A stretch of DNA of 64,000 nucleotides. Source: Microbacterium cremeum. GTDB taxonomy: Bacteria > Actinomycetota > Actinomycetes > Actinomycetales > Microbacteriaceae. Position 1 is the stretch's first letter. The number at the start of each line of letters is the position of its first letter. The notes below the pieces were generated by a model, which was not told where the DNA came from, did no database searches, and saw nothing but the letters and a program-made list of their open reading frames with translations. Below are positions 50 to 14,132 of the stretch, piece after piece. The position numbers were made by a program, and so were the translations under genes. The stretch covers positions 1 through 64,000 of the forward strand of contig NZ_CP063812.1 of NCBI RefSeq assembly GCF_015277855.1, in the 5' to 3' direction.

Positions 50-98
50 TTGCTCACACGACGCCCGCTGACTAGCGTGGCTCCGGCAGTTATCCACA
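50..98 (+). promoter_or_regulatory. Candidate dnaA promoter with DnaA box
   Basis: TTGCTC at 50-55 and TAGCGT at 73-78 are separated by 17 bp, a reasonable sigma-70 spacing although each hexamer is only a partial match. A perfect DnaA box TTATCCACA lies just downstream at 90-98, before the dnaA start at 156. A box in this place would allow DnaA to repress its own gene, as known in several bacteria; that regulatory role is inferred. Confidence 0.4.
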
Positions 99-1659: not shown

Positions 1660-1967
1660 TCGGGTTCTCCCCAGTGTGGAAAACCTGTGGATAACTCCCG
1701 AAGCCTGCGGAAACCGCTGTGGGCGACGTGTCGAGGCCTGTGGATGGATGAGGGATGCCGCAGGCCGCGGCATCCCTCATCCCGATGTGATTCCGCAGCC
1801 GCTCCACAACTCACACGCGTGTGGTTTCGGTGCGGCGACTGGGATCGCGAGAGTTGTCCACAGTTTCCACAGCCGTTAACACCATGACAAAGAGATCCTT
1901 CATGAGAACCCGTTCGATCACCTTGTGCGGTGGAGGGCCGGTGGGCCGGGCCTCTGCCCGAGCAGGA

Positions 1968-12823: not shown

Positions 12824-13726
12824 GTGACCACCGACGACTTCCGCCGCAACAGCGAGAACTTCTGCTACCGGCATCCTGATCGACAGAGCTTCGTGCTGTG
12901 CCAGCGGTGCCTGCGCACGATCTGCCCCGAATGCCAGACTCAGGCCGCGGTCGGCGTGATCTGCCCGGAGTGCCTGCGTGATCAGCAGAAGGCGCAGTCG
13001 CCTGCGCAGCGCAGAGCCGAGCGTCGGTGGTCACGCCCTCAGGCGGTCGCGGTGCGCGACACGCGCCCCATCGTCACGTACGTGATCATCGGGATCACGG
13101 CGTTCGTATACCTGCTGACGCTCATCCCCGGGATCGGCGACGCGATCCAGAGCGCGCTGCTGTTCTGGGCGCCCACGCTCTACCCGAGCTTCTTCCCGCA
13201 GTTCGGCGGGCTGGTCGAGCCGTGGCGGCTGTTCACCGTCTCGCTCGTCCACTCGAGCTTCTGGCACATCGGCCTGAACATGCTGGCGCTGTTCCTGATC
13301 GGCCGCAGCCTCGAACCGCTTCTCGGCCGGTGGCGCTTCGTGACGCTCTACCTCCTGAGCACGCTCGGCGGCTCGGTGGCCGTCACCCTGCTGTCGTTCG
13401 GGACGCCGGTGGTCGGGGCATCCGGGGCCATCTTCGGCCTGTTCGGCGCGCTCCTCGTGATCGGCCGGCACCTGGGGGCCAACATCGCCGGTATCGCGAT
13501 CGTGCTGGGCATCAACCTCGTCATCGGATTCATCCCGGGCTTCAACGTCTCGTGGCAGGCGCACGTCGGCGGCCTGGTCGTCGGCCTGCTGGTGGGCTTC
13601 ATCTTCACGCGCACGCGCGCGGCGCGGCAACGCGGCCTCCAGATCGCACTTCTGGTCGCGGTGGCGGCCGTGCTCGTGGCCCTGCTGTTCGTGCCCGTGG
13701 TCTTCCCGACCGCCGTGATCAGATAG
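12824..13726 (+). CDS. Rhomboid family intramembrane serine protease with N-terminal zinc-ribbon
   Basis: Rhomboids cleave substrates inside the membrane. Residues about 14-48 contain paired cysteines (FCYRH, LCQRCLRTICPEC, ICPEC), a small Zn-finger-like cytosolic domain. Six or seven membrane segments follow, with catalytic Ser200 in GASGAIFG and His247 in QAHVGG, both present. The start is GTG at 12824. Substrates are unknown. It lies 27 bp after ppiA and may be cotranscribed. Confidence 0.92.
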   Translation: MTTDDFRRNSENFCYRHPDRQSFVLCQRCLRTICPECQTQAAVGVICPECLRDQQKAQSPAQRRAERRWSRPQAVAVRDTRPIVTYVIIGITAFVYLLTLIPGIGDAIQSALLFWAPTLYPSFFPQFGGLVEPWRLFTVSLVHSSFWHIGLNMLALFLIGRSLEPLLGRWRFVTLYLLSTLGGSVAVTLLSFGTPVVGASGAIFGLFGALLVIGRHLGANIAGIAIVLGINLVIGFIPGFNVSWQAHVGGLVVGLLVGFIFTRTRAARQRGLQIALLVAVAAVLVALLFVPVVFPTAVIR

Positions 13727-13730
13727 CACC

Positions 13731-13818
13731 GCGGGAGTTATCCACAGGCTCATCCACAGGTGGGGAGAATCACACCTGTGTAATTCACACCTGTTAACAG
13801 AGTTGTTAACAACTCCCG
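13731..13818. promoter_or_regulatory. Ectopic DnaA-box cluster with palindromes, between converging genes
   Basis: TTATCCACA (13738-13746) and TCATCCACA (13750-13758) are two DnaA-type boxes 12 bp apart. CGGGAGTTATCCACAGG (13732-13748) is the exact reverse complement of oriC bases 1684-1700. Next come two TCACACCTGT direct repeats, the palindrome CTGTTAACAG (13791-13800) and the 16-bp palindrome GAGTTGTTAACAACTC (13800-13815). CGGGAGTT and AACTCCCG flank the element. Bases 13765-13815 are about 40% GC. It lies between two gene ends, so it is not an ordinary promoter. Confidence 0.65.
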
Positions 13819-13848: not shown

Positions 13849-13876
13849 AAAAGCCCCGGTCGTCTCAGACCGGGGC
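13849..13876 (-). terminator. Rho-independent terminator of crgA
   Basis: On the minus strand, nine perfect pairs GCCCCGGTC/GACCGGGGC with a six-base loop are followed by TTTTCC. It lies 16 bp past the crgA stop and is a textbook intrinsic terminator. Confidence 0.85.
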
Positions 13877-13892: not shown

Positions 13893-14132
13893 CTATCGCC
13901 AGCGCGTCGTCATCAGGAACCCGAGGAAGGCGATGCCGAAGCCGATGACGAGGTTCCAGGCGTCGATACCCGGGATCGGATACTGCATGCCGCTCAGATA
14001 GAAGACGAGGATCCAGACCAGACCGATGAGCATCAGTCCGATCATGATCGGCTTGAACCACACCGGGTTGGGTGCGGCCTCGCCTTCTGCGCGCTCGACG
14101 AGCGAGTCGTCGTCTTTGCCGGGTCGTGCCAT
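13893..14132 (-). CDS. crgA: Cell division protein CrgA
   Basis: CrgA is a small divisome membrane protein that bridges FtsZ and septal peptidoglycan enzymes in actinobacteria. The 79-residue product has two membrane segments (about 29-48 and 60-75) linked by a short loop, with the family motif PNPVWFKPIM before the first. The ATG at 14132 is chosen; the longer frame upstream lacks family similarity. It is divergent from the sortase gene and close to the kinase/PBP block, its usual neighbourhood. Confidence 0.93.
   Translation of the reverse strand: MARPGKDDDSLVERAEGEAAPNPVWFKPIMIGLMLIGLVWILVFYLSGMQYPIPGIDAWNLVIGFGIAFLGFLMTTRWR

What the first reader, a model, noticed from the sequence alone, without database searches (positions are those of the whole stretch)
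13731..13818. Oriented DnaA-box satellite with AT-rich palindromes, 12 kb from oriC
The 88-bp element has TTATCCACA and TCATCCACA 12 bp apart, two perfect palindromes around GTTAAC, two TCACACCTGT repeats and an 8-bp inverted flank. It shares a 17-bp exact string (in reverse) with oriC 1684-1700. Because it lies between two gene ends it is unlikely to be a promoter. It could titrate or reactivate DnaA (like datA or DARS of E. coli), or be a satellite origin part. None of these roles is proven.
Basis: partly seen in the sequence, partly recalled or inferred. Interest (0 to 1): 0.75.

Follow-up and report, generated by a model that had tools for sequence, protein, structure and literature searches.

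The report
Conserved DnaA-binding site beside crgA gene
A 50-letter non-coding DNA element, made of three binding sites for the replication starter protein DnaA plus a mirror-image motif, sits just behind the cell-division gene crgA in Microbacterium and in many other actinomycetes, and the matching site in mycobacteria is already known to bind DnaA, so it is very probably a widespread controller of DnaA, not a chance repeat.

Summary
The conserved core (13736-13786) holds three DnaA boxes, not two (13738 +, 13750 +, 13761 -), running into a palindrome, (G)AATTACAC-NN-GTGTAATT(C) in relatives. GTTAAC and the second TCACACCTGT are lineage-specific extras. A model of the core hits 195 of 198 same-genus genomes; it lies next to crgA in 60 of 61 checked. 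At least two boxes also lie behind crgA in 20 of 30 more distant genomes. The element occurs in both orientations. Read on the minus strand its boxes have the topology of E. coli DARS cores. The mycobacterial equivalent (Rv0010c-Rv0011c gap) binds DnaA in vitro and in vivo, and variants there resemble dnaA variants (PMC7738170). Best reading: an oriC-proximal DnaA-regulatory site of the datA/DARS kind, ancient in actinomycetes, whose palindrome takes a second factor or a DnaA pair. Binding and phenotype are shown only for the mycobacterial site; direction (sink or reactivator) and palindrome binder are open. New variant of a known kind.

The parts
13738..13746 (+). DnaA box 1, TTATCCACA
   Evidence: exact consensus; each letter 98-100% conserved in 60 same-genus elements
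13750..13758 (+). DnaA box 2, TCATCCACA, 12 bp after box 1 (start to start)
   Evidence: spacing 12 in 51 of the 55 elements (of 91 examined) where both boxes fit the box pattern
13761..13769 (-).
   Evidence: its GGG and the GAAT at the palindrome's edge are 95-100% conserved in the genus; aligned in A1
13767..13786 (.). Conserved palindrome GAATCACACCTGTGTAATTC (relatives: AATTACAC-NN-GTGTAATT)
   Evidence: its ACA and GTGT give 7 of the 14 invariant columns among 31 rows of A1; only 7 places within 2 mismatches of TTACACNNGTGTAA in the whole genome
13791..13800 (.). Accessory palindrome CTGTTAACAG
   Evidence: GTTAAC within 70 bp on the palindrome side in 20 of 60 same-genus elements, on the box-1 side (80 bp) in 0 of 60
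13802..13813 (.). Accessory palindrome GTTGTTAACAAC
   Evidence: two GTTAAC in 13 of 61
13732..13739 (+). Left arm of the 8-bp inverted flank CGGGAGTT
   Evidence: flanks outside the core not conserved in the genus
13811..13818 (-). Right arm of the 8-bp inverted flank (AACTCCCG on +)
1665..1694 (-). oriC copy of the three-box module (boxes at 1665 +, 1675 -, 1686 -) without the palindrome
   Evidence: model R1 hits 1664-1699 at 30.3 bits, E 1.2e-6
12824..13726 (+). Rhomboid-family gene, ends before the element
   Evidence: PF01694 8.4e-33
13893..14132 (-). crgA, cell division protein gene; its 3' end faces the element
   Evidence: PF06781 1.8e-26
13853..13876 (-). Terminator-like hairpin behind crgA, between crgA and the element

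Best explanation
The element is an oriC-proximal DnaA-binding control site. Three DnaA boxes (one facing two tandem ones) seed a DnaA oligomer, and the adjoining palindrome takes a dimeric partner protein or a second DnaA pair. The complex acts in trans on the pool or nucleotide state of DnaA, as datA, DARS and DnaA-box clusters do elsewhere, and so couples replication to growth and division. Lying within 60 kb of dnaA in most genomes measured, it is doubled soon after initiation. Shown here: sequence, conservation, place, box topology. Shown by others for the mycobacterial site only: DnaA binding, and a dnaA-like phenotype of variants. Inferred: action in Microbacterium, direction of action, palindrome binder.
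For: Genus: 195 of 198 genomes hit by model R1 at E 0.01, 180 of 180 of good quality; 60 of 61 checked have it by crgA, median 35 bp from the stop. Pattern scan: 109 of 119 stretches have crgA, always with the element downstream, 107 within 286 bp, 66 antisense and 43 sense to crgA. Class: at least two boxes within 250 bp of the crgA stop in 20 of 30 genomes, 24 of which had no earlier element hit, against 0 of 980 control windows. The GTTAAC module keeps to the palindrome side in both orientations. 34 single-contig genomes: median 20.0 kb from dnaA, 30 of 34 under 60 kb. E. coli DARS1 and DARS2 boxes lie +0, -14, -26; here, on the minus strand, +0, -11, -23. Mycobacterial site: one of five genome-wide DnaA regions by IDAP-seq with M. 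tuberculosis DnaA and ChIP-seq in M. smegmatis, plus gel shift; recurrent clinical variants cluster in its palindrome, and three rebuilt ones gave longer cells, as dnaA variants do (PMC7738170).
Against: No binding or phenotype data for Microbacterium. The mycobacterial paper's discussion speaks of longer cells with unchanged initiation rate for dnaA and site mutants, which does not favour simple titration of oriC. The gap between facing boxes is 0-3 bp here and 5 bp in DARS. Some lineages show no array right behind crgA (L109, L112, L115, L116, L125, L131 of the 30), so it is dispensable. Constant company of crgA could mean a local role, or just shared descent.
Confidence: 0.7

Rival explanations
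1. Sub-model A of the best explanation: a DnaA sink (datA or B. subtilis/Streptomyces cluster type). It is duplicated just after oriC and soaks up or inactivates DnaA, preventing re-initiation.
For: oriC-proximal place, 30 of 34 genomes under 60 kb; review passage that S. coelicolor and B. subtilis DnaA-box clusters repress untimely initiation (PMC5742627).
Against: Mycobacterial discussion: unchanged initiation rate, and phenotypes like those of variants with decreased DnaA activity (PMC7738170); three boxes are a small sink.
Confidence: 0.3
2. Sub-model B of the best explanation: a reactivator (DARS type). One box facing two tandem boxes makes ADP-DnaA release ADP, with the palindrome factor in the part of IHF/Fis.
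For: Same order, orientation and 12-bp tandem spacing as the box cores of E. coli DARS1 and DARS2; mycobacterial variants resemble decreased DnaA activity.
Against: Facing gap 0-3 bp, not 5; the window's oriC carries a like triad (1665-1694), so the topology alone is not diagnostic; place near oriC, unlike DARS1 and DARS2 (PMC5742627 passage).
Confidence: 0.25
3. A local element: DnaA-dependent control or termination of crgA/rhomboid transcription, or an antisense RNA start.
For: Nearly always beside crgA where crgA was found; in M. tuberculosis the palindrome is 65 bp ahead of the Rv0010c start codon (PMC7738170).
Against: Lies beyond crgA's terminator-like hairpin; occurs in both orientations; no sigma-70-like promoter (that consensus only); expression of both flanking genes unchanged in mycobacterial dnaA mutants; found 1-2.4 kb from crgA in L188, L217, L295 and with no crgA in the 1.5-kb flanks of L054 and L063.
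Confidence: 0.1
4. A tether: the element and the like triad in oriC pair through DnaA (handcuffing or loop), or it is a satellite part of the origin.
For: Like triad at oriC 1665-1694; 17-bp identity.
Against: No unwinding element was looked for or is known here; distance to dnaA varies from 10 to 173 kb.
Confidence: 0.1
5. Chance, or a structured RNA.
For: Both window strands fold better than their shuffles (z -4.0 and -5.1).
Against: Consensus fold of 31 elements is -0.88 kcal/mol with no compensatory pair; both orientations occur; conservation.
Confidence: 0.01

Closest known systems
M. tuberculosis Rv0010c-Rv0011c DnaA interaction site (Hicks et al. 2020, PMC7738170)
   Same: Beside crgA (that Rv0011c is crgA is recalled), DnaA-box cluster with a small palindrome; seven unnamed loci of family f22 (probably Mycobacteriaceae) show a palindrome-like motif and two or three boxes behind crgA (L083-L089).
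   Different: Followed there by Rv0010c, not a rhomboid gene; the paper's text does not name crgA ('crga' 0 occurrences), and I saw no comparison beyond mycobacteria in the passages read.
E. coli DARS1/DARS2 cores
   Same: Three boxes, one facing two tandem ones, tandem starts 12 bp apart (box scan at up to 2 mismatches, regions chosen from the positions in PMC5742627 and recall).
   Different: Facing gap 5 bp there, 0-3 here; IHF/Fis sites of DARS2 not sought here; DARS lie far from oriC.
E. coli datA and the DnaA-box clusters of B. subtilis and S. coelicolor
   Same: DnaA-box groups outside oriC that restrain initiation (PMC5742627 passages).
   Different: Not compared box by box (boxes near E. 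coli datA were only listed); the S. coelicolor paper was not held. That one of its clusters (H69) lies on the cosmid of crgA is recall.
Three-box module in the window's own oriC
   Same: Boxes 1665 +, 1675 -, 1686 - mirror the element, with 17 identical bases.
   Different: Starts 10 and 11 bp apart instead of 11 and 12; no palindrome.

Membership tests
Mycobacterial Rv0010c-Rv0011c DnaA site (orthology) | Lies directly 3' of crgA near oriC | tested here: met
   crgA identity of Rv0011c recalled
Mycobacterial Rv0010c-Rv0011c DnaA site (orthology) | DnaA-box cluster with a small palindrome | tested here: met
   mycobacterial description from PMC7738170
Mycobacterial Rv0010c-Rv0011c DnaA site (orthology) | DnaA binds it | not testable with these tools
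   shown for the mycobacterial site only (PMC7738170)
DARS | Core of three boxes, box I opposite to II and III | tested here: met
   definition from PMC5742627
DARS | Core spacing as in E. coli (14 and 12 bp) | tested here: not met
   11 and 12 in the window; facing spacing 11-12 in 50 and 9-10 in 5 of the 55 elements that could be measured
DARS | Stimulates ADP release from DnaA | not testable with these tools
   needs biochemistry
datA | IHF site between boxes; stimulates hydrolysis of DnaA-bound ATP | not tested
   IHF sites were not sought; hydrolysis needs biochemistry
Extra-oriC DnaA-box cluster controlling initiation | Deletion changes initiation frequency | not testable with these tools
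   needs genetics; the mycobacterial discussion speaks of an unchanged initiation rate

The most novel reading that the evidence does not exclude
Actinomycetes share one ancient DnaA-control centre behind crgA: a DARS-like box triad coupled to a palindrome read by an unidentified, conserved dimeric protein that plays the part of IHF/Fis and sets DnaA activity in step with cell division. The drug-tolerance variants seen in clinical mycobacteria would be hits in this class-wide switch.
Probability: 0.35. Interest if true: 0.88.

Novelty: new variant of a known kind. Interest (0 to 1): 0.74.

Why it matters
How actinomycetes time replication is poorly known; the review passages seen describe datA, DARS, IHF and Fis for E. 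coli. This work places one DnaA site, described only in mycobacteria in the papers seen, at the same spot in many families of the class. It defines its parts (three boxes, a palindrome, an optional GTTAAC module) and gives a hypothesis, testable in harmless species, for why variants there alter cell length and drug tolerance in clinical strains.

Tried and rejected
Regulon operator: the palindrome has only 7 places within 2 mismatches in the genome, the element's own being one of two with 1 mismatch; rejected as a many-gene operator. Structured RNA: consensus fold -0.88 kcal/mol, no compensatory change; the one Rfam match at E up to 1 is far below its gathering score (17.7 against 70 bits). 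Promoter: no sigma-70-like site. GTTAAC palindromes as the functional core: in 20 of 61 same-genus stretches only. Satellite origin: not tested beyond sequence likeness. HigA2 (a mycobacterial antitoxin) binds the mycobacterial site in vitro, motif ATCAC-N6-GTGAT (PMC11205783 passages), which fits the palindrome; a relative in Microbacterium was not searched for. Order- and class-wide R1 counts (262 of 297 at E 0.01; 144 of 296 at E 1e-4) are not used as element counts, because the window's own oriC also scores 1.2e-6; for the same reason the weakest same-genus hit (G132, 1.3e-3) may not be the element. Strict box counts miss diverged arrays: L104, L111, L119 and L127 count as negative though boxes are visible to the eye. 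Failed scripts: (file error), redone as with another method; one search used too strict a CrgA pattern, replaced by an HMM.

Full report
WHAT IS THERE. The window is the first 64 kb of a 3,982,951-base single-contig genome, dnaA at 156-1598. Its genus is very probably Microbacterium: the same-genus genome G074 has a 912,295-base contig (L004), the length of the Microbacterium salsuginis contig holding L182. The 88-bp element lies between a rhomboid gene and crgA, which end towards each other. Two were missed: a third DnaA box on the minus strand (TTCTCCCCA, 13761-13769) and a palindrome GAATCACACCTGTGTAATTC (13767-13786).

CONSERVATION IN THE GENUS. Model R1, built without structure from 31 aligned elements (A1), hits 195 of 198 same-genus genomes at E 0.01 and 180 of 180 of good quality. 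In 60 same-genus genomes picked from the crgA list, plus the window, 60 of 61 carry the element in the fetched stretch; the miss (L305, G160) has an R1 hit of 1.4e-12 at a place not listed. Median distance to the crgA stop is 35 bp (2-1075; L305's spurious value of 538 is included in that median). Conservation has sharp edges: mean majority fraction 0.89 for boxes 1-2 and 0.89 for box 3 plus palindrome, 0.43 and 0.44 in the flanks. GTTAAC follows the palindrome in 20 of 60 elements and stands on the box-1 side in 0 of 60, although 46 elements are antisense and 14 sense to crgA: the module and the core turn together. This argues for a DNA element, not an RNA or a terminator.

BEYOND THE GENUS. 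A DNA search with 13715-13830 hits 104 of 199 family genomes, 57 of 85 genera; the 29 best from other genomes (L006-L034) all have both crgA and rhomboid in the fetched flanks. 109 of 119 have crgA in the fetched DNA, all with the element on its 3' side, 107 within 286 bp, 66 antisense and 43 sense; 115 have crgA or rhomboid; four (L147, L195, L233, L245) have neither. In 30 order-, family- and class-level genomes (24 without an R1 or DNA hit, six with weak R1 hits) crgA was found in all, and at least two boxes lie within 250 bp of its stop in 20 of 30, against 0 of 980 control windows of the same loci. In sets chosen by the element itself, and partly holding the same genomes twice, the figures are 15 of 18 (set, 2 dropped for no crgA; controls 0 of 1223), 55 of 56 (L006-L064, 3 dropped; controls about 1 of 1729) and 101 of 109 (pattern set, 10 dropped; controls about 13 of 13470). 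No array is visible in the 170 bp behind crgA in L109, L112, L115, L116, L125 and L131; four of these come from genomes of 0.8-1.4 Mb. In L092 the R1 hit lies about 600 bp from crgA. In family f14 and a few others, hits on both strands share the palindrome, a symmetric variant.

PLACE. In 34 of 36 single-contig genomes the listed hit lies 10.3-173 kb from dnaA (median 20.0 kb; 30 of 34 under 60 kb; 33 of 34 on the downstream side of dnaA). Not every one of these hits was checked for crgA.

ANATOMY COMPARED. In E. coli, a box scan of the DARS1 and DARS2 regions gives + at 0, - at 14, - at 26 in both. Read on its minus strand the element is + at 0, - at 11, - at 23: same order and orientation, same tandem spacing, shorter facing gap. 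The window's oriC has a like triad at 1665-1694 without palindrome, so the topology is shared with oriC and is not proof of DARS action.

FUNCTION. Hicks et al. 2020 (PMC7738170; outline, passages and discussion seen) mapped DnaA of M. tuberculosis in vitro and DnaA in M. smegmatis in vivo: five regions, among them Rv0010c-Rv0011c. Recurrent clinical variants cluster in a small palindrome there; three rebuilt variants gave longer cells and isoniazid tolerance like dnaA variants; the discussion speaks of unchanged initiation rate, and expression of the two flanking genes was unchanged in dnaA mutants. That Rv0011c is crgA is recall. Unnamed family f22 loci (L083-L089, genomes of 4.5-6.2 Mb, probably Mycobacteriaceae) show a palindrome-like motif and two or three boxes behind crgA. 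I therefore take the Microbacterium element as an ortholog by place and parts. Binding and phenotype are shown for the mycobacterial site only.

MECHANISM. Most likely a trans-acting DnaA control site. Sink or reactivator cannot be decided: place and the Streptomyces/Bacillus precedents (PMC5742627 passages) favour a sink; box topology and the decreased-activity-like phenotype favour a reactivator. The palindrome's invariance suggests a dimeric factor; Hicks et al. read their palindrome as two DnaA-like boxes, which is the alternative.

NOVELTY. Ten searches of the open library gave no paper that, in the listings and passages seen, joins crgA with a DnaA site across actinomycetes. Besides the papers above I saw passages of PMC4285127, PMC6265350, PMC3937824, PMC3411110, PMC13270200, PMC4585315, PMC8613195, PMC11205783 and PMC4255298. 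Most subscription papers and bioRxiv preprints are not held, and the 2006 Streptomyces cluster paper could not be read, so earlier notice of this conservation cannot be excluded.

Mended after recount: the matrix is not independent of the window; L092 is not a case of absence; counts dropped before each tally are named.

Noticed in passing
window 1665-1694: oriC carries a like three-box module, mirrored, without the palindrome; GTTAAC also occurs once in oriC (1875).
   Followed up: partly
window 90-98: An exact DnaA box TTATCCACA upstream of dnaA; the rpmH-dnaA region is one of the five DnaA regions of mycobacteria (PMC7738170).
   Followed up: no
L060, L061, L062 (family f14): Symmetric variant: boxes on both sides of the palindrome, R1 hits on both strands overlapping.
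   Followed up: partly
L054, L063 (family f12): Element beside rhomboid with no crgA found in the 1.5-kb flanks; four f12 genomes (G655, G530, G673, G570) have two hits about 364 bp apart.
   Followed up: no
L112, L116, L125, L131: Small genomes (0.8-1.4 Mb) keep crgA but show no box array in the 170 bp behind it; possibly useful for finding the palindrome's binder by co-loss.
   Followed up: no
L205: A contig labelled Patulibacter MAG carries crgA with the element; possibly a mis-binned contig.
   Followed up: no
L106, L107, L114 (family f37, genomes of 7-9 Mb, probably Streptomyces): Boxes behind crgA without the adjacent palindrome, but a GACGCCGGTGTGAC-like sequence a little further on.
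   Followed up: partly
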